In this document: positions 18,457-30,408 of the stretch, in pieces
Position numbering within the stretch: the first letter of the stretch is position 1
Layout of the letters: every line of letters begins with the position of its first letter
From: Myxococcota bacterium
GTDB lineage: Bacteria; Myxococcota_A; Polyangia; Polyangiales; JANWZI01
Length of the DNA: 38,210 nt
Assembly: GCA_025054695.1 (NCBI GenBank)
Contig: JANWZI010000033.1
Span: forward strand, 1-38,210
Direction: 5' to 3'
Notes under the pieces: generated by a model
Seen by the model: only the letters and a program-made list of their open reading frames with translations
What the model was told of the DNA's origin: nothing
The model's database searches: none
Translations under genes and position numbers: made by a program

Positions 18457-19260
18457 CTACTCTGACCCCGCGACGCAGCAATCGAACAGGGCGATGAAGC
18501 AGCTCCGGTGCTCCGCCACGCCGACGAAGCGCGCCCTGGGATGCACGATGGCTGCGTAGTGACCGGAGCTGTGCCGCCATCCCCAGACGGCGTCGGGGCC
18601 GTCGCGGAAGCCCGGGCCGGCGGCGATTTCGTTCACGGTCCAGCGATGCTGCGGGAAGCCGCAGGCCATCGCGCGGTCCCACGGCCAGCTTCCGTCGGAG
18701 CCGACGTGCCCGCACGAGCCCGAGGCGCCGACGTCGCGCGCGTGTCGGCGGGCGGCGCACAAGAGCCGTTCGTCGATGGCGACGGAGGGAAGGCCACGAC
18801 TGCGGCGCTCGTCGTTGAGCGCGTCGAACAGACTGCGTTCCATGGGGGTCAGCTCCACGCCCGGGCCCGCATCGACGCCCGCGTCGGGCGGCTCGCGGGG
18901 CGTGGGAGGCGGGGGCTCGGGGGGGCGTGCTCCCGCGTCGGTGGGCGGAGTCGGCGGGGAGGGGTCGATGCGCGCGTCGGGCCGCGCCGTTCCTCCGTCG
19001 CGCGGCAACGGCGCGACGGGGGGAGCATCCGGCTCGGGGGGTGCGACGGCGGCGTCCGACGGCGTACGCGGTGCCGAGACGACGATGACGGGGTCGCACG
19101 CCGGCACGAGCGCTGCGACGGCCATCCAGGTCAACAGGCACCTCTTGGCGCTTCGTAGACGGGCACGATCGGGAGCGCGGTCGCGGTCCGCGCGGGGGGT
19201 GGACAGGAGCCCCGGCGTGTCCCGGCGGCGCAGAGCCGTCGCACGGCTGCGAGGCGTCAT
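18457..19260 (-). CDS. CAP-domain (SCP-like) lipoprotein, copy 2
   Basis: A 267-aa exported protein. The likely lipobox is LVPAC (Cys near 55 from the ATG at 19260); the long Arg-rich region before it means the true start may lie further in, but no better start with a ribosome binding site is visible. A Pro/Asp/Ala-rich linker (about 60-135) leads to a CAP domain: ERSLFDALNDERRSRGL, the first His region HARDVGASGSCGH, NEIAAGP, and SSGHYAAIVHPRARFVGVA near the C terminus. Bacterial CAP proteins are secreted; their substrates are mostly unknown. It follows the other CAP gene by 32 bases on the same strand, so both are probably one transcript. The ending is convergent with csb3. Confidence 0.8.
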   Translation of the reverse strand: MTPRSRATALRRRDTPGLLSTPRADRDRAPDRARLRSAKRCLLTWMAVAALVPACDPVIVVSAPRTPSDAAVAPPEPDAPPVAPLPRDGGTARPDARIDPSPPTPPTDAGARPPEPPPPTPREPPDAGVDAGPGVELTPMERSLFDALNDERRSRGLPSVAIDERLLCAARRHARDVGASGSCGHVGSDGSWPWDRAMACGFPQHRWTVNEIAAGPGFRDGPDAVWGWRHSSGHYAAIVHPRARFVGVAEHRSCFIALFDCCVAGSE

Positions 19261-19292
19261 GGGGCCGACGGGGCGACGCACGTGGCCCTCGC

Positions 19293-20216
19293 TCAATCCG
19301 TGAAGTTCTGCGTCCAGTACGGCGAGCCGCCGCACGGCCAATATCCAATGCCGATGCGCCGGTACGCACGCCCCAAAATATTGGAGCGGTGTCCGGGGCT
19401 GCTCATCCAGGCGGCGTGCACCTCGGCGGGCGTGCGCTGCCCCCAAGCGATGTTCTCGCCCGCCGCTCCGTATCGGGCCCCTTGTTCTTCGATGCGATCG
19501 GTGAACGAGCGCCCGTCGAGCGACGTATGGCTGAAGTAGTCACGGTCGCACATGTCCTTGCTGTGCAGTCGCGCGGCCCGCGTGAGCGCGTCGTCGCAAA
19601 CGAGCGCCGGCAACCCGGCCGAGGCGCGCGCCTCGTTCGTCAGACGCAGCTCTTCGGTCTCGGTCGCCCCGCCGCAGCCGGCGAGCGGATCGGTCGGATC
19701 GGCGCCCCCGCCCGCCGGCGGGCTCGACGGCGGTGGGCTCGGCGGCGGCCTTGAGCCCCCGGGACCGGGGCGGTCGCCGCGACCCCCGCAGTAGTACCCG
19801 ATCTGATCGTCGACCCATCCGCAGCCTTGCGCGCCACACTCGCGGATCTTCACGACCCCGTCGTCGCACCAGCGCGCGATCGTCCCGACGCATTCGCCGA
19901 GGTAGTCGAGCGAGCCACAGGGGCCACCAGCGCCGAGGTCGTCACCGCGAGGGTCCGGGGCAGAGCCGCCTCCCGGCCCACTTGGCGGGGAAGCCTCGGG
20001 CGGCGCCTCCGGATCGTCCGATCCGCCCGACGGAGGAGCCGAAGGGGGCGCGGAGGGCGGCGGGCCGCCGTCCAGCAGGCGGATGCGCGGCCCCGATTCC
20101 TCGCCGTCTTCGCCCTTGCGGGAGGTCGAAACGACGAGCGCGCTGTCGCAGCCCGCCATCTCGAGCAAGACGGTCAGCACCCACGCGGTCACGATGGGCC
20201 TTCGGTCGCATCGCAC
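19293..20216 (-). CDS. CAP-domain (SCP-like) lipoprotein, copy 1
   Basis: A 307-aa protein. The GTG at 20216 gives an Arg-rich n-region, a hydrophobic stretch and the lipobox EMAGC, so it is preferred; the GTG at 20192 is the alternative and has a modest GAAGG upstream. A long Pro/Ser/Gly linker is interrupted by a small Cys-containing module (CGSLDYLGECVGTIARWCDD to GYYCGG), then a second proline stretch. A canonical CAP domain ends the protein: LRLTNEARASAGLP, LHSKDMCDRDYFSH, GENIAWGQ and AAWMSSPGHRSNILG, with both His and both Glu positions present. It is a closer match to the bacterial YkwD type than its neighbour. Probably an outer-membrane or surface lipoprotein; function unknown. Confidence 0.83.
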   Translation of the reverse strand: MRCDRRPIVTAWVLTVLLEMAGCDSALVVSTSRKGEDGEESGPRIRLLDGGPPPSAPPSAPPSGGSDDPEAPPEASPPSGPGGGSAPDPRGDDLGAGGPCGSLDYLGECVGTIARWCDDGVVKIRECGAQGCGWVDDQIGYYCGGRGDRPGPGGSRPPPSPPPSSPPAGGGADPTDPLAGCGGATETEELRLTNEARASAGLPALVCDDALTRAARLHSKDMCDRDYFSHTSLDGRSFTDRIEEQGARYGAAGENIAWGQRTPAEVHAAWMSSPGHRSNILGRAYRRIGIGYWPCGGSPYWTQNFTD

Positions 20217-20422
20217 ATGCCATATGGATGTATTTGAAATAACGCACGAATTCGTCTTGGCTGGGAGCCCGGAGCGCTCCGCGATCCGTCCCAGAACGCT
20301 CGCGGCTCCCGCGCTTGTCCCCGGCGTGCACCCACGGTGCGGTGCGCGTGGCCGAGCCGGGCACGAGGCGCGTGCTTCGGTCGCGGCCACCTCAAGCGTC
20401 GGGGCTGCTACGCTGAGGCCAG
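20217..20422. promoter_or_regulatory. Divergent intergenic region with an AT-rich island
   Basis: Between the CAP operon (minus) and aminopeptidase P (plus). Bases about 20220-20254 (ATATGGATG, TATTTGAAATAA) are strikingly AT-rich for this window, as expected for a promoter. TTGAAA at 20234 could be a forward -35, but no matching -10 is clear, so direction is unresolved. Confidence 0.35.
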
Positions 20423-22441: not shown

Positions 22442-25400
22442 TCAGGTCGTCGACTCGGCTACGAGGTGGGCGCGGAGGTAGTCGGCGACCGGCCCGCGTG
22501 CGAGCTCGTGGTGGACGAACTGGTTGCGGTAGCTGCGCAGGCAGCCATAACAGCTCGTCTCGGGCGCACAACCACATCTCCCGTCGATCCGCCGCAACGC
22601 GGCGCGCAAGCAGGCCTCGAGGACGTGCCACTGCTCCAGCTGCGCGACGAGGCCGGCTCCTCCCGGCACGTCGTCGTACAAGACGATCGGGGGAATGGGG
22701 GCCGCGTCGTTTCCGTGCGCGACCACGACGTCGAGATCGGTCTCGGGAACGTCGAGCACCTCGGCCGCGCCTCCGAGGAGGGCGTAACCGAGCGAGAGCG
22801 CAAACGAAACGGGCCGTACGCCGGATGGCACCGCGCCCGCGAATTGCAAGCGGAGCACGTGCGTGACGAACTCGTGGCCGAGCGCCCTGCGCCGCAGCTC
22901 TCCCGAGCACGTTCGGCCCCAGGCCGTTTGGTGCTCGGTGTCTTCCCCATGCTCCCGTCCGCACGCTTCACAGAGCCGCAGATCCAGGCCGCGTTCGCTC
23001 TGGCTGAGCACGACGAGTCGGCCGGGCGATGCGGGGGTCACGTGGACCCATGGGCAATCGGCCGGCAGGCCGACCTCCCGCTGGATGGCCTCCGCATCGA
23101 CGTGGGCGGCGAAGTAGGGGCGCGTCGCCGAGGCGCGCCGCGGCCGCTGCCGCCCCGCAGGACCCCTCACGCGGCCGACGAAACCGAACCGCGGCTCGAC
23201 GAAACGACCGAGCGGCCGGGTACACCCGCAGGGGAGACTCACGTGTCCACCCCCCTGGCGCCGCACGGTGTCGGGGTCACGCACGAGCACCAGGACGTGA
23301 TGCTGGTAGCATCGCGCATAGCCCGACACCGGCAAGCTTCGCCTGGGGAGGGTCTTCACGGCGAGCGACTCGATCAACCATTTGTTCGCGACGAGCTGCG
23401 CACCGGGGCGATACTCGGCGATCCCGATGCGCAAATCGCGTTCGAGCTCGAGCTCCCCGGTCGATGCGGCGCCCGGTACGAGCTTCAATCCGACGACGTC
23501 CACCGGAAAGCCGTACTTCGGAATGACGGCCTTGCGCGACAGGAAGGCCAACGTGTCTTCCTTTTCGAACGCTCGGAGTCGACGTTTGGCCCAACCGGCT
23601 TCTTCGAATTTTTCCCCGGAAGCGGACTCCACTTTGTACTTCAGCAGCTGCCCGTAGTCGTACGCGAGCTCCGCTTCGGTGTCGTCGAGCCGGCTGCCGT
23701 CTCCGAGCACGCGGTCGACCCAGCTGCCATCGAGGAGCCCGACGGGGGCATGCAACGGTTCGGGAAGAATCTCGCGGAGGACGCGCTCGAAGTCCCGTTG
23801 GTACCGGCGCACGTGCTCGCGAAGATCGACGCGCAGCCTCGGTGTATCGAGGGTCTCGAACGTACGCAGCACGGTTCCGAAGCGGTCGGGATGGCTTCGA
23901 AACCAGTGCGCCAGGACGACGGCGAACACGTGGCGCAGGGCGATGACGTCGTTTTGCAGTGCGATGGTGGGCGGACGGGTGCGACCGAGGACGAGGCGCC
24001 ACGGATCGGCGAAATGCACGACGTCGTGGGGGCGGCGCGAGCAATACGTGACGGCGAGACCGGGACGGCCCGGGCGGCGGCCGCAGCGACCGACGCGCTG
24101 CGCATAGTTGAACGGCTCGGGCGGGACGTTGCGCAAAAACACCACGCTGAGCTGTCCGAGGTCGACGCCGACCTCGAAGGTCGTCGAGCTGCTCAGAAGT
24201 TGGATGTCCCCCGCGCGAAAGTCGCTCTGAATGCTCGCCGCATGGGCACGCTTCAACTGGGCCGTGTGCTCCTCGACGCGGTACAGCGCCGCGGCGGGTC
24301 GGTCGTACAGGCCGCGATAGTGCGCGAGATCGCGTGTCGCGTCGAGACCCGCGCGCAGCTCGCCCGGACAGCCGTAACGCGTGCAGACGCCGAGAAAGGA
24401 CCGACCGTCGGGCGGCGCCGAGGGGTCGGTGTCGGAAGCCGTCCGCGCCGGCAGGTGCACGTCGCGCAGGCAGGTACCGTGGCGACGTCGGCAGGTGTCA
24501 CAAAGAACCGCGTCGGCGTCGGCACCGTCGAGCACGAGACGCCACCAGTTCGGGTTGAGGCGCATGCCATGGCTCGCCGACACGAGGAGTCCATCGCGCC
24601 GCAATCTGCGATCGAGGTCGACGAGCCAGTCCCAGAGGGCTCGCAGCGTGCGCCGGCAGGTCTCGATCGCGTCGGACTTGTCGAGATGGGGTGCGAGCCG
24701 TCGCAACAGCCTCCGGAGCAGGTCGACGCGGCGGCCGCGCTCGGCGGCCCAGCGTACCTCTCCCTCGATTCGGCGGGCGACTTCGGCGGAGGTGACGTAG
24801 GTCTGGGGCGCGCGGTGCTCCAAAGCGGCCCATTCGAGCACCTGGCCACGCGCCCCGCAGCGCAGCTCCACGGCGCGGTCGATGCGCAGCGTGGCGAGCA
24901 GCTGCTCCGTGAGGGCCTGCGCATCGCGCTCGGACAGCCCCCACGGCTGCTCGAGAAAGACCGGCGGTACACCCACGGCGGCCGGCCAGCGAAGAAACGA
25001 CCGCAGAAGGCCCATTCCTTCGAGGGACAGGGTGTGGTCTTCGGTGAGCCACTCGCGGTATACGACGCGAAAAGCCTCCCGCAGGCACTCGATTTCCGAC
25101 GTGGATGGTGCGACGAAGCCGACGTCGGCCAGCCGTGGGGCACTGGCCCGCGCGAGGTCCGACAGGGACAGCGGTGTGGCGTCGTGCTCCTGCGCACTGC
25201 GAACCGTGTCGAGCAGCAGGGCTCGTTCGGCGAGATCACGGCTCGAGGCATCGAGGTAGCTCGCGAACTGCGCCGCACCCTGGCGGCCGTCCGTGAACGC
25301 GAGGATCGAGCGTGCCTCCGGAGGCAGTGCGTCCCACAGCGCCGTTGCGATGACGACGCTGGGGCCCTCGCTTCCGTGGACGACCTCCGCGACGGGATCC

Positions 25401-27196
25401 GGGCCCTGGTAGCCGCAGCGGACGCAGCGTGCGACACGATCCTCGTGGGTTCTCGACACCGCGACCTCACCGACCCGCAGCGGCTGCGCCGCCTCCGCGC
25501 AAGCGCAAGCGAGCGGCTCGCCATCGCACACGAGGCGGGCACAGCGCAGGCAGACGGTGTGGGGGCTGACCGCGTCCTCGTCGAGGTCTTCTTCGAGTGG
25601 TACGTAAAACCGAACCCCGGTGGCCCGTGAATCCGGATCGCGGACTGCCTCGGCGAGGCGACCGTCGCGCGCCGCTCCGACGAGGTAGTGCTGGCCACAT
25701 TCTCGGCACAGGGCGAGCTCGAAGCGGGCGCCTTCGCAGGAGGCCGGGCCCAGCATGACGCGCGGTGCGGGAAGGTACGAGACGAAGGCTCCTTCGAGGC
25801 CACGAACGAAGACGTGATAGCGAACGGACAGGGAAGGGAGGATTCCGAGCGGATCCTTGCACTCCGTCAGCAACTTCAACAGGAGCGCCGTTGCGTCGAC
25901 CCGATCGATGTCGGTCTCCCGCTCGGGAAACACGGCGGCCGCGAGGTCGGCGAGCTCCCGAGGCCCCTCTTCGAGACTGCGATGCACGACCAGGGCGCGC
26001 GCATCGCGAGCCAACAACGCGGACACGACGGCCTCGAGGGACCCATGCCTCCGTGGCCCCACGTCGAGCGACGCGGCACGTCGCAGCACTTCGTCGCGAG
26101 CCGTCGGGTCGCCCTCGAGGGCGCGGACCATCGCGTCATAGTCCCGCGCGCTCAGCGACCAGGCCGCCGAGGGCGTTCGAAGGGGCTCGCGTTCCGCCAA
26201 AACGACATCCTCGGTGCCGAACGGCTCGCCACACAGTTTCGAGGCGAACTGCGCGACCGCCGTCCGATCGTCCGGCCCGCCGGCCAGGCTCGCGCTCGTG
26301 AGGACGCACCGCAGCGGTCGCGCGAGACCACCCGCGCGCAAGCGCTGCTTGAGCCGTGCGATCAAGAGTGCGAGCTCGGCCGCGCGTGTGCCCTTGTACA
26401 CGTGCGCCTCGTCGAGCACGAGCCACCTCCAGCGCCGCGCCGCGTCGCCGTCGAAGAAAGGACTGTCGCTCGGGCGCAGCAGCATGTACTCGAGCATGCT
26501 GTAGTTGGTCATGAGGATGTGCGGTGGCGATTGGCGCATCTCTTTGCGGGTCGTGATCTCGCCGTGGACGACGCGGCCGTCCTCCTCGAGCGCGTATGCG
26601 TCGATGTGGATGCCCTTGGACGACTCGTTGGCTTCGGCGTCCGTCTCCGGAGTACTGCCCGTGTATTCGCCGTACGTGAAGCGGAACGCCGACCCGGCTT
26701 CCACGAACGCTCTCGCGAGCGTTCCCAGACGCGTCCGCTGATCATGGACGAGCGCGTTCATCGGATACACGATCACCGCGCGGACGCCCGGATCGAGGCG
26801 GCCCTCGCGATGCTCCCGATAGAGGTCCATCAGGATGGGAAGCAGAAATGCCTCGGTCTTGCCGCTCCCGGTTCCCGTCGCGACGACGACGTTGCGGCCC
26901 GCGTGTGAGGCGCGAATCGCGCGCTCCTGGTGGGCGTACAGCGGCCGCTCCGCTCCGAGGGCGCGCACGAACGGCTCTTCGATCGGCTCCCCGAGCAGCT
27001 CTCGCAGCAGGGCGTCGGGCATCGCGCCCAGCCGGTATCGAGGAATCGCCTCGACGATGGGGCCACGCACCAGGCGGAACGCTTCGAGGCTCTCGTGGAA
27101 CGCCTCCCGTAGGGGGCGGTCGCGGAACGCGAAGCGACTTCGCAGATACGCGCGGTAGGCGGCTTCCAGAGCACGAGCCACGTGTCGGGCGTTCAT
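22442..27196 (-). CDS. Large DEAH helicase with C-terminal DUF1998 (DruE-like)
   Basis: The 1584-aa product has an SF2 helicase core with YAHQERAI (Q motif), Walker A ATGTGSGKTE (about 106-115), VIVYPMNALVHDQ, LVLDEAHVYKG (DEAH 262-265) and LTSASLAG. Helicase domain 2 ends in FNYAQRVGRCGRRPG (about 1030-1045). Between the halves lie Cys-pair knuckles that look like zinc ribbons: LCRECGQ (about 499), CLRCARLVC with CAC (about 550), RCVRCGYQG (about 589) and LCDTCRRRHGTC (about 899). The C terminus is a DUF1998 module: LYDDVPGGAGL, CGCAPETSCYGCLRSYRNQF and HHEL. This plan is that of the Druantia protein DruE and other defence helicases such as DpdJ. Start ATG has GAGGTG just upstream and lies 25 bases after the stop of the preceding gene. 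Confidence 0.85.
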   Translation of the reverse strand: MNARHVARALEAAYRAYLRSRFAFRDRPLREAFHESLEAFRLVRGPIVEAIPRYRLGAMPDALLRELLGEPIEEPFVRALGAERPLYAHQERAIRASHAGRNVVVATGTGSGKTEAFLLPILMDLYREHREGRLDPGVRAVIVYPMNALVHDQRTRLGTLARAFVEAGSAFRFTYGEYTGSTPETDAEANESSKGIHIDAYALEEDGRVVHGEITTRKEMRQSPPHILMTNYSMLEYMLLRPSDSPFFDGDAARRWRWLVLDEAHVYKGTRAAELALLIARLKQRLRAGGLARPLRCVLTSASLAGGPDDRTAVAQFASKLCGEPFGTEDVVLAEREPLRTPSAAWSLSARDYDAMVRALEGDPTARDEVLRRAASLDVGPRRHGSLEAVVSALLARDARALVVHRSLEEGPRELADLAAAVFPERETDIDRVDATALLLKLLTECKDPLGILPSLSVRYHVFVRGLEGAFVSYLPAPRVMLGPASCEGARFELALCRECGQHYLVGAARDGRLAEAVRDPDSRATGVRFYVPLEEDLDEDAVSPHTVCLRCARLVCDGEPLACACAEAAQPLRVGEVAVSRTHEDRVARCVRCGYQGPDPVAEVVHGSEGPSVVIATALWDALPPEARSILAFTDGRQGAAQFASYLDASSRDLAERALLLDTVRSAQEHDATPLSLSDLARASAPRLADVGFVAPSTSEIECLREAFRVVYREWLTEDHTLSLEGMGLLRSFLRWPAAVGVPPVFLEQPWGLSERDAQALTEQLLATLRIDRAVELRCGARGQVLEWAALEHRAPQTYVTSAEVARRIEGEVRWAAERGRRVDLLRRLLRRLAPHLDKSDAIETCRRTLRALWDWLVDLDRRLRRDGLLVSASHGMRLNPNWWRLVLDGADADAVLCDTCRRRHGTCLRDVHLPARTASDTDPSAPPDGRSFLGVCTRYGCPGELRAGLDATRDLAHYRGLYDRPAAALYRVEEHTAQLKRAHAASIQSDFRAGDIQLLSSSTTFEVGVDLGQLSVVFLRNVPPEPFNYAQRVGRCGRRPGRPGLAVTYCSRRPHDVVHFADPWRLVLGRTRPPTIALQNDVIALRHVFAVVLAHWFRSHPDRFGTVLRTFETLDTPRLRVDLREHVRRYQRDFERVLREILPEPLHAPVGLLDGSWVDRVLGDGSRLDDTEAELAYDYGQLLKYKVESASGEKFEEAGWAKRRLRAFEKEDTLAFLSRKAVIPKYGFPVDVVGLKLVPGAASTGELELERDLRIGIAEYRPGAQLVANKWLIESLAVKTLPRRSLPVSGYARCYQHHVLVLVRDPDTVRRQGGGHVSLPCGCTRPLGRFVEPRFGFVGRVRGPAGRQRPRRASATRPYFAAHVDAEAIQREVGLPADCPWVHVTPASPGRLVVLSQSERGLDLRLCEACGREHGEDTEHQTAWGRTCSGELRRRALGHEFVTHVLRLQFAGAVPSGVRPVSFALSLGYALLGGAAEVLDVPETDLDVVVAHGNDAAPIPPIVLYDDVPGGAGLVAQLEQWHVLEACLRAALRRIDGRCGCAPETSCYGCLRSYRNQFVHHELARGPVADYLRAHLVAESTT

Positions 27197-27221
27197 GAGT
27201 CACCTCGTGTCGGGAACGGAG

Positions 27222-30200
27222 TCAGGGGGTTTTCTCATGGGCGGCGCAAAGCGTCTGCAGGCGGGCTCGCAGCGGGTCGACGACGTGCGGCCGGCGCTGG
27301 ACGGCGCTCGAGGCGCGTGCGCGCCAGACGGCTGTAAGAGCGATGGGGGTTCCTCGCCGGGACGCCCATTCCATCAAGCAGCTCAATGCAATCAAGGCGA
27401 CGTCGATGGCTTCGTCGGCCGCCTTGCGCCGCCGTGCGTAGAGGAGCTTGCGCACCGGTTGCAAAAAGCGCCGCACCACGGGGCCTCCTTGGCGGGCGAG
27501 TCGGGTCAACAAGCGCACCAGCTCCGCCCGTCGCGGCGGACTGGGCGCTCGCGAGGTCGACGGGACCGAGGCACCGTCCCTCACGTCGGCCACGTCGTCG
27601 CGTGCCTCGTCACGACCGTCCGGGGCGTGGCTCGGCTCGGACTCCGCCATCGGTTCATCGGGCTCCTCCCACGCGTCGTCATCCCACGGGTCCAAACGGG
27701 AGACGCACTTTGAGCCCGAGTCGGAGTCCGACTCCGAGTCCGGCTCCGAGCCCAAGTCCGAGTCCGAGCCCGAGGCCGAGGTCGGGCCCGAGTCCGAGTC
27801 CGAGTCCGAGACCGAGTCCGAGTCCGAGTCCGAGACCGAGCCCGAGACCGAGTCCGAGACCGAGTCCGAGATCGGGCCCGAGTCCGAGACCGAGTCCGAG
27901 CCCGAGCCCGAGTCGGAGTCGGGGTCCGACGCGAGAACCGTGGTTGGGTCACGAGGCGCCCCGTGCAGGTTGGGCTCGCCAGGGTCGCCGGCGCGTGCCT
28001 GGGTGGCGAGATCGTCGACGAGTTCGGAGGGTCGCTCCGGGGCAACAGAGCAGGCTTCCGAAGCCAGGCAAGAAACGTCCACGTGCGCGACGGCCCCCTC
28101 GACTTCCGTGCCAGGCCCTCCCTCGTCCGGACGAAGCTGCACGAGGAGACCAACGCGCGCGCCGGAACCGTCCGGCAGCCGAGAACGATCGAAGTCCCCA
28201 AGCGGAATGCGTACCGTGCCGTCTTCGAAGGGCACTTTGAACCAACGCGTCGTGTCTTGGTCGAGGCGGACTGCGATGCCGGATCTGCGCCACCCTCTCG
28301 GCACACGGATCTCGAGGAAGACGTCGCGCTCGGCTCGAAAGTCATCTGGCCGTAACTCGAGTGGCTTCGACGTCCAGGCGTTCTCGGCGCCGCGGTGATC
28401 TCGAACGAGGCGCCACCACAGCCGCGGAAGCGCGAAGCAGACCTGCACCCGTTCGGGCAAACCCACGTGGGTCGCGCGGTCAGGGTTCGTCGGGGCGAAT
28501 GCAACGACGAACACGTCGCAGTGCCAGTGCGGACGAACACGAAGCCGCGTGCCCTTCTCGTCGGGCTCGGCCGAGACGCCTTCGGGGCACTCGACGCACC
28601 GCAACTGCGGCCCGTGCTCGACGACGATGCAGACCTCCTGGTGCCCGTCGGGGCCCGGGATCACGGGTACGGAGTCGGGCTCGAAACGGATCGCGTACAG
28701 ACCGGGCGCGTACCGGAACGACGTGCTGTCGACGAGATTCCACCGCTCGTCGTACGCGCGCACGAAGTAGCGACCGGCCTCGCGTTTCCGAACGAAGGAG
28801 GGCAGCTTCAGTCCGGACGGCGAAGACTGGACGTCCACCTTGACCTTGCGCCGACCTCGGCCCGGTCCTTCCTCGCCCACGACGAGCATGACGACCCGGC
28901 GCGAGCTCGACGCGTTGTCGCCCGTAAATCGGACGACGGGGAGGGTCGGCCCGATGAACAGCGGCTCACCGGACGGATGGGCGTCGTCGAGTCGCTCTCC
29001 GTCGAGGAGCAGCGAGGGCCCCTCGAGGTCCACGGGGTACGCGGTGCCGGTCTCGTCGGTGAAGCGGATCGGCGCCGAGGGGTCCGCAATCGTAACGTGA
29101 TAGGCGATCCACTGAGGGTCGGCCGTAGGATCCCACTCGTCGTTGCGAATCGCTCCCGACGAAATGTCCGGCCGCATGGAACACGGCACGACGAGAAGCC
29201 ATCTCTCGCCGGGACGTGGGCGCCGCTTGAGGGCCGTGCCACGGTTCCCCTCCGCGAGAAGGCGGAATGCGAGGATGCTCGTGGGCCCAAGAAGCCCCAA
29301 CTCCCGTCGGGTCCCGGTGAGGTCCTCTTCGAGTCGAATCGGGAGGTCGAAGGAGCGGACAGGATAGGTCCACGGCGCGTCGCCGTCCGGGGTGAGCGGC
29401 TCATCGTCCTGGAAAACGCGCGGTTGCACCTCTTCTCCGTAAGCCTCGGTTCCCTCGAGGACGACCACGAGGACCCACTGGCCGGAGATCCAGAGCACCT
29501 CGAGTCTGGCGACGAACCGCGGCGATGCCTGGCGTTTGCCGAGATCCCCGCCGTCGGACGTGAGTGCCGCGTCCGGCTCGGAGCGAGGACGCCCGCCTCG
29601 CTTTTCGGGAGGCACCTTCCGCCGATGTGCGTCGACGCCGTGCGCTCTGGGCGCGGGTACGCTGATGGACGCCGATTCGTCGTTGGTTCCGGAGTCGGCC
29701 GGGGGCCGGATTCCGACGTCGCCGGCGTCGCTCACGTGGTTGTCGGCCGACGTGGGCTCGTCACCGCTTGCGGCGGAATCGGTATTGCTTGGAACCACGG
29801 GCTCCACGGGTAACTCCTCGCCGTTTTCGGAGCCCGGCCCATCTCGGAGCTGGATGCTGACGATCTCCGCACTCCGTGCAGCGTCCGTTCCGCTTTCCGC
29901 GATGGCTTTCTCTCGAAGCTCGGCGCTCCCCGTCTCCGGGTCGGCTGCCTCGCCTCGTGCTGCCGCGGCCTGTTCGGCTGGCTCCGCGCTCGAGGGCATG
30001 CGTTGCAAGGCGCTCGGCCCATCTGCCGCCGAGCTGCGGCGAGTGTCCGTCGGCGCGGAGATCCGTTGCGTCGACGGTGCCGCGTCGTCGTTGGAGTCCG
30101 CGGCCCAAGCAGGCTCCAAGCCCCGGCCCGAGCTCGACTCCGAGCCGGACCCCGAAAGCGAGCTCGAGACGCACTCGGGGATCCGCGCATGCGGCCCCCT

Positions 30201-30392
30201 CTCTGCGCTGGACCTGGAGCTCGAGCGGGGATGCAATGCGCGGCGGAGCCACTCGACCACTGCGGTCGGCAGCTTGGCCAGTCCCCGTACGAATTCGGCA
30301 AGCCACCGAGCCGCAAGGACCCACGACGCTCTACCGCCTTTCGTGCTTCTCATGGCACGTGCTTCGACATCGATCCGCGGTGCGCGATTCAT
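27222..30392 (-). CDS. Ser/Asp-rich multidomain protein, candidate DruH-like partner of the helicase
   Basis: A 1056-aa protein I cannot assign to a named domain. It has a basic/amphipathic N-terminal helix (about 20-50), then a disordered acidic Ser/Ala/Glu-rich region to about 290. A folded beta-rich core (about 290-775) has Ig-like strands such as GRYFVRAYDERW, PGLYAIRFEPDS and WHCDVFVVAF. A Ser-Asp repeat tract follows (about 821-894), then a basic helical tail (RRAELVRLLTRLARQ, KLLYARRRKAADEA; about 950-1056). It is the first gene of a two-gene operon with the DUF1998 helicase, matching the druH-druE order of Druantia type III; that identity is inferred from layout and size. The ATG at 30392 has a very strong ribosome binding site. 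The frame stays open upstream to about 30737. Confidence 0.7.
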   Translation of the reverse strand: MNRAPRIDVEARAMRSTKGGRASWVLAARWLAEFVRGLAKLPTAVVEWLRRALHPRSSSRSSAERGPHARIPECVSSSLSGSGSESSSGRGLEPAWAADSNDDAAPSTQRISAPTDTRRSSAADGPSALQRMPSSAEPAEQAAAARGEAADPETGSAELREKAIAESGTDAARSAEIVSIQLRDGPGSENGEELPVEPVVPSNTDSAASGDEPTSADNHVSDAGDVGIRPPADSGTNDESASISVPAPRAHGVDAHRRKVPPEKRGGRPRSEPDAALTSDGGDLGKRQASPRFVARLEVLWISGQWVLVVVLEGTEAYGEEVQPRVFQDDEPLTPDGDAPWTYPVRSFDLPIRLEEDLTGTRRELGLLGPTSILAFRLLAEGNRGTALKRRPRPGERWLLVVPCSMRPDISSGAIRNDEWDPTADPQWIAYHVTIADPSAPIRFTDETGTAYPVDLEGPSLLLDGERLDDAHPSGEPLFIGPTLPVVRFTGDNASSSRRVVMLVVGEEGPGRGRRKVKVDVQSSPSGLKLPSFVRKREAGRYFVRAYDERWNLVDSTSFRYAPGLYAIRFEPDSVPVIPGPDGHQEVCIVVEHGPQLRCVECPEGVSAEPDEKGTRLRVRPHWHCDVFVVAFAPTNPDRATHVGLPERVQVCFALPRLWWRLVRDHRGAENAWTSKPLELRPDDFRAERDVFLEIRVPRGWRRSGIAVRLDQDTTRWFKVPFEDGTVRIPLGDFDRSRLPDGSGARVGLLVQLRPDEGGPGTEVEGAVAHVDVSCLASEACSVAPERPSELVDDLATQARAGDPGEPNLHGAPRDPTTVLASDPDSDSGSGSDSVSDSGPISDSVSDSVSGSVSDSDSDSVSDSDSDSGPTSASGSDSDLGSEPDSESDSDSGSKCVSRLDPWDDDAWEEPDEPMAESEPSHAPDGRDEARDDVADVRDGASVPSTSRAPSPPRRAELVRLLTRLARQGGPVVRRFLQPVRKLLYARRRKAADEAIDVALIALSCLMEWASRRGTPIALTAVWRARASSAVQRRPHVVDPLRARLQTLCAAHEKTP
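27711..27930 (-). repeat. Coding hexamer array giving a Ser-Asp repeat
   Basis: About 36 six-base units (plus strand GAGTCC, GAGACC, GAGCCC; coding strand GGACTC and variants) lie inside the DruH-like gene and encode alternating Ser, Asp and Gly. The hexamer composition is the same as in the intergenic tracts. Because the unit is six bases, copy-number change would alter length without a frameshift. Confidence 0.85.
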
Positions 30393-30399
30393 GACCCGT

Positions 30400-30408
30400 C
30401 CTCCTCCC
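30400..30408 (-). promoter_or_regulatory. Strong ribosome binding site of the DruH-like gene
   Basis: The minus strand reads GGGAGGAGG seven bases before the ATG at 30392. It fixes the start, although the frame is open for another 115 codons upstream. Confidence 0.7.

What the first reader, a model, noticed from the sequence alone, without database searches (positions are those of the whole stretch)
22442..30392. Two-gene DUF1998-helicase operon: candidate divergent Druantia type III with an acidic Ser-Asp-rich partner
A DEAH helicase of 1584 aa ending in DUF1998 follows by 25 bases a 1056-aa protein of unknown fold. Known Druantia type III is exactly two genes, druH then druE. Here the partner has long disordered tracts flanking a beta-rich core and a basic helical tail, which I do not associate with described DruH proteins. 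It may be a divergent type or a new two-gene defence system.
Basis: partly seen in the sequence, partly recalled or inferred. Interest (0 to 1): 0.75.

Follow-up and report, generated by a model that had tools for sequence, protein, structure and literature searches.

The report
DruE-like helicase with Ig-chain partner
The window carries a two-gene, probably antiphage, operon: a DNA helicase related to the Druantia helicase DruE, paired with a previously unnamed protein built from immunoglobulin-like domains whose relatives end in borrowed parts such as ribosomal-protein, zinc-finger or sigma-factor domains; it is a new branch of a known defence kind rather than ordinary Druantia type III.

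Summary
In detail: 22442-27196(-) encodes a 1584-aa DEAH helicase ending in DUF1998/MZB, 25 bases after a 1056-aa gene (27222-30392).

The helicase matches PADLOC DruE profiles. In a tree its clade joins only a sister clade with a different partner (support 1.0), apart from DruE III, DruE I and ARMADA helicases. Like nearly all of its clade it stops about 36 residues after the last DUF1998 cysteines, so it has no C-terminal nuclease.

The partner has no DruH hit. It belongs to an unnamed family. Its core is directly upstream of the helicase in 53 of 55 clade loci (the other two are contig-edge fragments that look like partner C-termini), across at least a dozen phyla including archaea. The core is predicted as a chain of Ig-like domains (pLDDT 88). 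A remote DruH resemblance (HH probability 14-25%) beats shuffles but proves nothing.

Ends are swappable: N-terminal membrane helix, sigma-70 or coiled coil; C-terminal uS9-, eL13- or uS5-like domains or zinc fingers. The Ser-Asp tract is peculiar to this member.

Best reading: a defence pair in which the partner is sensor/adaptor and the helicase acts on phage DNA. It works like Druantia III but failed that membership test. Antiphage activity is untested.

The parts
22442..27196 (-). DruE-like / YprA-family SF2 DNA helicase, 1584 aa, ending in MZB (DUF1998); no C-terminal nuclease domain
26855..26875 (-). Walker A motif GTGSGKT (residues 108-114)
26402..26413 (-). DEAH box (residues 262-265)
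24077..24100 (-). helicase motif VI QRVGRCGR (residues 1033-1040)
22538..22789 (-). MZB / DUF1998 zinc-binding domain (residues 1470-1553)
27201..27206 (-). ribosome-binding site GAGGTG of the helicase gene
   Evidence: sequence read
27222..30392 (-). partner gene, 1056 aa, Ig-chain adaptor family
30400..30407 (-). ribosome-binding site GGAGGAGG of the partner gene
   Evidence: sequence read
30225..30326 (-). N-terminal amphipathic helical stretch (residues 23-56); in 17 of 26 relatives of the close family an N-terminal transmembrane helix stands here
29529..30224 (-). disordered linker ahead of the core (residues 57-288)
   Evidence: composition
29583..29612 (-). conserved short motif PPEKRGGRPR (residues 261-270), resembling an AT-hook; kept in about 18 relatives
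   Evidence: AT-hook likeness: own knowledge
28047..29528 (-). conserved all-beta core (residues 289-782), predicted chain of Ig-like domains
27708..27926 (-). Ser-Asp-rich acidic tract (residues 823-895), low complexity, specific to this member
27225..27536 (-). basic helical C-terminal module (residues 953-1056), weakly similar to the helical end module of L060, L064, L065 and L068

Best explanation
This is an intact two-gene antiphage (or anti-mobile-element) module of the YprA/DruE helicase superclade, of a lineage distinct from Druantia I-IV and ARMADA. The upstream protein is a sensor/adaptor: a chain of Ig-like domains between two flexible arms, with a membrane-associated N-terminus in most relatives and a nucleic-acid-binding module at the C-terminus. 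I propose that it recognises an infection (phage protein and/or phage nucleic acid) and recruits or licenses the DUF1998 helicase. The helicase then loads on single-stranded 3' ends in phage DNA and translocates, blocking circularisation or replication, with nucleolysis left to the partner or to host nucleases. Shown: gene pair, homology, intact motifs, strict and co-evolving association, all-beta core model, module swapping. Inferred: antiphage role, sensing, membrane recruitment, helicase polarity and effector step.
For: Helicase hits DruE HMMs and a solved DruE-size helicase (9tu7, 6e-67) far better than MrfA (6znp, 2e-16). Its clade's sister-group and separation from DruE III, DruE I and ARMADA. 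Core HMM in 53/55 clade loci directly upstream, 0/12 in the sister clade. Distances of core and helicase correlate r = 0.94 over 38 pairs, max of 2000 permutations 0.24; the partner diverges faster (mean identity 29% vs 51%), as reported for DruH versus DruE (PMC13192584). Core model pLDDT 87.6, Ig-chain matches. N-terminal TM helix in 17/26 close-family partners versus 17/96 neighbouring ORFs (Fisher 6e-6), with K/R mostly on the C-terminal side, i.e. core in the cytoplasm. C-terminal S9, L13e, S5_C domains and zinc fingers, N-terminal sigma-70. Patchy spread: 1 of 379 genomes of its own phylum, though flanking genes have 55-69% identical homologues in the order. Relatives' neighbourhoods hold CRISPR III, RM, Zorya, MADS and Gabija-type genes. 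Mechanism modelled on Druantia III (PMC13192584, PMC13316683).
Against: No phage assay exists for this lineage. No nuclease was recognised in either protein. The window's own neighbours have housekeeping-type domains, so there is no defence island here. The window member has only an amphipathic N-terminal stretch, no clear TM helix, and none of the recognised ribosomal or zinc modules. Defence genes near relatives were counted without a control set. Distance correlation partly reflects shared descent.
Confidence: 0.6

Rival explanations
1. It is Druantia type III (or the nuclease-less 'type III-like/III-B' branch already noted by Bell et al. 2025), and the partner is simply DruH diverged beyond recognition.
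For: Same order partner-then-helicase, similar sizes, DruE3 profile 5e-135. The core aligns with DruH over about 196 columns in DruH's Ig-like region; score 37.7 beats 60 column shuffles (max 22.8) and the reversed profile (17.4), probability up to 25% with better alignments. DruH is reported to contain three Ig-like domains (PMC13192584). Bell et al. mention a Druantia type III-like branch mostly without nuclease (PMC12458937).
Against: No DruH profile hit for the partner or relatives; tree places the helicase outside the DruE III clade, which already contains a nuclease-less DruE with a DruH-like partner (L151); DruH's helical N-terminal part and C-terminal region have no visible counterpart; HH probability is well below the usual threshold.
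Confidence: 0.2
2. The terminal modules are baits: copies of host ribosomal proteins and sigma factor that phage proteins normally attack, so that attack on the bait triggers the helicase (as with integrated decoys in plant NLRs).
For: uS9, uS5, eL13 and sigma-70 domains are all parts of host machinery and are swapped on a constant scaffold.
Against: The archaeal member (L046) carries a bacterial-type uS9 domain (1.2e-8 to bacterial S9; best archaeal hits about 4e-3), and bacteria carry an eL13 domain although eL13 is an archaeal/eukaryotic ribosomal protein (own knowledge; NCBIfam L13e 2.9e-16), so the 'bait' often does not match the host. Zinc fingers are not host baits. All these modules bind nucleic acids, which is a simpler common denominator.
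Confidence: 0.12
3. A DNA-repair or genome-maintenance pair of the MrfA/YprA type without a defence role.
For: YprA-family helicases include repair enzymes; the window's neighbours are housekeeping genes.
Against: Much closer to DruE than to MrfA, very patchy distribution (1 of 379 genomes of the phylum), defence genes around relatives, fast-evolving partner, no MrfB exonuclease.
Confidence: 0.08

Closest known systems
Druantia type III (DruH-DruE)
   Same: Two genes, partner first then DUF1998 helicase; DruE-type helicase; large partner with Ig-like domains that diverges faster than the helicase; weak profile similarity of the core to DruH's Ig-like region.
   Different: Helicase in a separate clade, without the C-terminal PLD region; partner not recognised by DruH profiles, no helical N-terminal part; instead membrane-anchor/linker arms and swappable nucleic-acid-binding end modules.
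'Druantia type III-like' branch / type III-B of Bell et al. 2025 (PMC12458937)
   Same: YprA-family helicases close to Druantia that mostly lack a nuclease.
   Different: The held text gives no description of a partner; L151, a nuclease-less DruE with a DruH-like partner in the window's phylum, is the more likely III-B and lies in another clade. Whether the present clade is included in their branch could not be checked (supplements not readable).
ARMADA (ArmABCD) / DISARM
   Same: YprA-family helicase with MZB/DUF1998.
   Different: No BrxHII-like helicase, no PglX-like methylase, no Vsr nuclease, helicase and DUF1998 not split.
MrfA (YprA) repair helicase
   Same: DEAH core and MZB domain.
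   Different: Twice the size (1584 versus 751 aa in 6znp), about 50 orders of magnitude weaker match than DruE, and a fixed Ig-chain partner.

Membership tests
Druantia type III | DruE helicase: SF2 DEAH core with MZB/DUF1998 | tested here: met
   PADLOC DruE3 5.2e-135, Pfam DEAD, Helicase_C and MZB above cut-offs, motifs intact
Druantia type III | DruH partner | tested here: not met
   No PADLOC hit at E 0.1 for the window partner, none to DruH in its aligned relatives; hhalign against DruH 14-25%; a DruH profile does recognise the DruH-like partner of L151
Druantia type III | C-terminal tandem PLD nuclease domains in DruE (type III-A) | tested here: not met
   36 residues after the last CxxC versus 418 in E. 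coli DruE
Druantia type III | helicase groups with DruE III in a tree | tested here: not met
   Clade of 42 helicases with support 1.0 excludes DruE III
Druantia type III | antiphage activity dependent on both genes | not testable with these tools
   needs plaque assays
Druantia types I/II/IV | druABCD, druMFG or druF+druL partner genes | tested here: not met
   The only operon partner hits no PADLOC family; the helicase lies apart from the DruA-linked DruE L124 in the tree
[quoted passage not shown]
   Neighbours are GMC oxidoreductase, M24 peptidase, CAP and SRAP proteins; ArmC lies elsewhere in the tree
YprA/DruE defence-branch helicases | SF2 core plus OB-CON-DUF1998 and extra CxxC zinc modules | tested here: met
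   MZB hit, six CxxC motifs, DruE and 9tu7 matches
YprA/DruE defence-branch helicases | BrxA-like helical insertion after RecA1 | not tested
   helicase (1584 aa) exceeds the structure-prediction limit; fragments were not modelled
Ig-chain partner family defined here | conserved all-beta core upstream of the helicase | tested here: met
   core HMM hits the window protein at 1.3e-115 (it is also in the training alignment); single-sequence phmmer from the window core reaches 1.3e-33 in L071

The most novel reading that the evidence does not exclude
A widespread, so far unnamed class of two-gene immune systems in which a membrane-tethered Ig-chain adaptor with interchangeable information-processing modules (uS9, uS5 and eL13 ribosomal-protein domains, zinc fingers, sigma-70) aims a nuclease-less DruE-like helicase at incoming phage nucleic acid, i.e. 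a modular receptor whose heads are borrowed from translation and transcription machinery.
Probability: 0.45. Interest if true: 0.78.

Novelty: new variant of a known kind. Interest (0 to 1): 0.6.

Why it matters
DruE-type helicases occur in several defence systems, but how they are aimed at phage DNA is unclear. Here is a large family in which the helicase is constant while the partner's ends are swapped for recognisable modules of known binding type (ribosomal-protein domains, zinc fingers, sigma factor) and the other end is often a membrane anchor. That makes the sensing question directly testable by module swaps. It would also show that ribosomal-protein folds have been recruited into prokaryotic immunity; I found no paper saying so in the held library.

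Tried and rejected
Druantia III membership (rejected: DruH profiles, tree, missing PLD region). Partner in plasmids: no match; in viral contigs: no match for one member's core. PDB sequence search with the core: nothing significant. Host-decoy reading of the ribosomal domains: tested with the archaeal member and weakened. A search with the full partner in its own genome gave 54 further hits, all confined to the Ser-Asp low-complexity stretch or its edges, not homologues; the search was repeated with the core only. A structure of the sister-clade partner (A3) was poor (pLDDT 54.5; helical N-terminal third, beta-rich rest) and only hints at a similar Ig-type build. Foldseek could not test DruH: 9tud was not among the 50 matches listed and the library stops at 8 April 2026. 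The contig-misbinning idea was checked: flanking genes have 55-69% identical homologues in the same order, so the operon sits in a contig of the right lineage.

Full report
OBSERVATION. Two adjacent minus-strand genes are present as described: partner 27222-30392 (1056 aa) and helicase 22442-27196 (1584 aa), 25 bases apart, each with a ribosome-binding site. The window is a whole contig (C188) of a 4.27-Mb, 261-contig genome (completeness 92.6%, contamination 1.1%). Neighbouring genes have housekeeping-type domains (M24 peptidase, CAP proteins, GMC oxidoreductase, SRAP) and the two tested have 55-69% identical homologues in other genomes of the order, while the operon's partner core is found in only one of 379 genomes of the phylum, this one. 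The pair was therefore probably acquired horizontally.

HELICASE. It carries DEAD, Helicase_C and MZB (DUF1998) domains with intact motifs. PADLOC's best profiles are DruE1 (3e-139) and DruE3 (5e-135); the best solved structures are a 2108-aa DEAD/DEAH helicase (9tu7, 6e-67; taken here to be DruE of Druantia III from its size and from the DruH entry 9tud) and a 1970-aa helicase (9wae), with MrfA far behind. A contig search found 80 relatives, many 38-45% identical over full length. A tree with E. coli DruE III, four further DruE III, a DruA-linked DruE, ArmC and others puts the window in a clade of 32 (support 0.67) that joins a second clade of 10 with support 1.0, to the exclusion of DruE III, DruE I-like and ARMADA helicases. 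Members end a median of 35 residues after the last CxxC, against 418 in DruE III and 480 in ArmC, so there is no C-terminal nuclease.

PARTNER FAMILY. No Pfam family covers the window's partner, nor any PADLOC family. phmmer with the core (about residues 286-785) finds the gene immediately upstream of the helicase in relatives from many phyla (e.g. 1.3e-33 in L071), and a core HMM finds it in 53 of 55 clade loci with at least 500 bases upstream. In the other two only a contig-edge fragment is visible, and both fragments look like partner C-termini (L072: helical module 1.5e-28; L086: L13e motif by eye). In the sister clade it is absent (0 of 12); there the upstream gene belongs to an unrelated family of about 1000 aa. 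Core and helicase distances are strongly correlated (r = 0.94 over 38 pairs) and the core is much more divergent (29% versus 51% mean identity). The loci include Acidobacteriota, Chloroflexota, Bacillota, Bacteroidota, Spirochaetota, Planctomycetota, Pseudomonadota, Bipolaricaulota, Latescibacterota, Verrucomicrobiota and a Methanophagales archaeon (from record titles).

FOLD. AlphaFold2 on 46 core sequences gives an all-beta model (pLDDT 87.6, pTM 0.85). Foldseek matches are chains of Ig-like domains (titin I-band, S-layer assembly domains, antibody and receptor ectodomains, phage Ig-domain and tail proteins), with low TM-scores as expected for flexible chains.

MODULAR ENDS. In the close family 17 of 26 partners with their own start carry an N-terminal transmembrane helix, mostly followed by a cluster of K/R, against 17 of 96 neighbouring ORFs (Fisher 6e-6); this orientation would put the core in the cytoplasm. 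Others, the window included, start with amphipathic helical stretches. Four partners carry sigma-70 regions 2-4 near the N-terminus (L088 residues 286-506, L105 233-453). Behind a disordered linker a short motif, KRGGRPR, recurs. After the core come different end modules: ribosomal S9 (4 members, 2.7e-14 Pfam, 3.8e-15 NCBIfam), L13e (3 + 7 members in Pfam, best 1.3e-9; NCBIfam 2.9e-16), S5 C-terminal domain (1 member, 3.3e-15), or CxxC-H-H zinc fingers in many others. The window's member has a Ser-Asp tract and a basic helical module that weakly resembles the end module of L060, L064, L065 and L068 (E 3.6e-6 among about 50 C-termini, but only 0.1 among 6008 ORFs).

RELATION TO DruH. E. coli DruH (L125) and six relatives were aligned. 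hhalign of the core against DruH gives probability 13.7%, P = 0.002, over 196 columns in the part of DruH reported as Ig-like; the score (37.7) exceeds 60 column shuffles (max 22.8) and the reversed profile (17.4), and better alignments raise the probability to 25%. This is a hint of common origin of one segment, not a demonstration. Conversely L151, a nuclease-less DruE of the window's phylum, has a DruH-like partner (5.4e-7) and groups with DruE III, so real DruH partners are recognisable at some distance.

HOW IT PROBABLY WORKS. By analogy with Druantia III, where DruH is thought to sense phage components and DruE loads on 3' single-stranded DNA (PMC13192584), or where DruH-DruE blocks phage DNA circularisation and replication (PMC13316683), the partner is taken as sensor/adaptor and the helicase as the DNA-acting arm. 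The end modules (ribosomal-protein folds, zinc fingers, sigma factor) share nucleic-acid binding, and the N-terminal anchor suggests action near the membrane. A host-decoy role is less likely, because an archaeal member carries a bacterial-type uS9 and bacteria carry eL13. Defence context is visible around relatives (type I RM next to L071, an HmaC-like ATPase next to L059, and Cmr4, type III RM, ZorA, MADS and GajB hits among the flanking ORFs scanned from 17 relatives' loci), though not in the window. Antiphage function, sensing and effector steps are inferred.

NOVELTY. Bell et al. (PMC12458937) already recognise a 'Druantia type III-like' branch of YprA helicases, mostly nuclease-less, so the helicase lineage may be partly on record. 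I found no description of the Ig-chain partner or its ribosomal and sigma modules in the held papers. Verdict: new variant of a known kind.

Noticed in passing
L094, L096, L099, L101, L102, L104, L107, L120, L148: Sister lineage of DruE-like helicases, mostly in gut and anaerobic Clostridia-type genomes, with a different upstream partner of about 1000 aa (alignment A3), no DruH profile match, predicted helical N-terminal third and beta-rich remainder.
   Followed up: partly
L151:1348-9524: In another genome of the window's phylum a nuclease-less DruE (1619 aa) overlaps by about 84 bases a 1135-aa DruH-like gene: a candidate Druantia III-B.
   Followed up: partly
L088:3608-7963, L091:4076-7963, L105:3893-7963, L106:3740-7963: Partner proteins fused at the N-terminus to sigma-70 regions 2-4 in four acidobacterial MAGs; four members of the same alignment match PADLOC MzaA (best 2.5e-63).
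   Followed up: partly
L103:2-3493: Partner core preceded by what looks by eye like an SMC/ABC-type ATPase half; LmuB (Lamassu) profiles match three members of the partner alignment (best 3.6e-9).
   Followed up: no
window 18457-20390: Two overlapping minus-strand ORFs each with a CAP (cysteine-rich secretory protein) domain, perhaps one gene in two frames or a tandem pair.
   Followed up: no
window 22466-25630 (+) and others: Very long antisense ORFs (for example 1054 aa opposite the helicase) that come from the 70% GC content; a reminder that ORF length is no evidence here.
   Followed up: no
own genome, 54 places: Ser-Asp-like low-complexity stretches are common throughout this genome's six frames, so the tract in the partner may be a lineage habit rather than a functional feature.
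   Followed up: no
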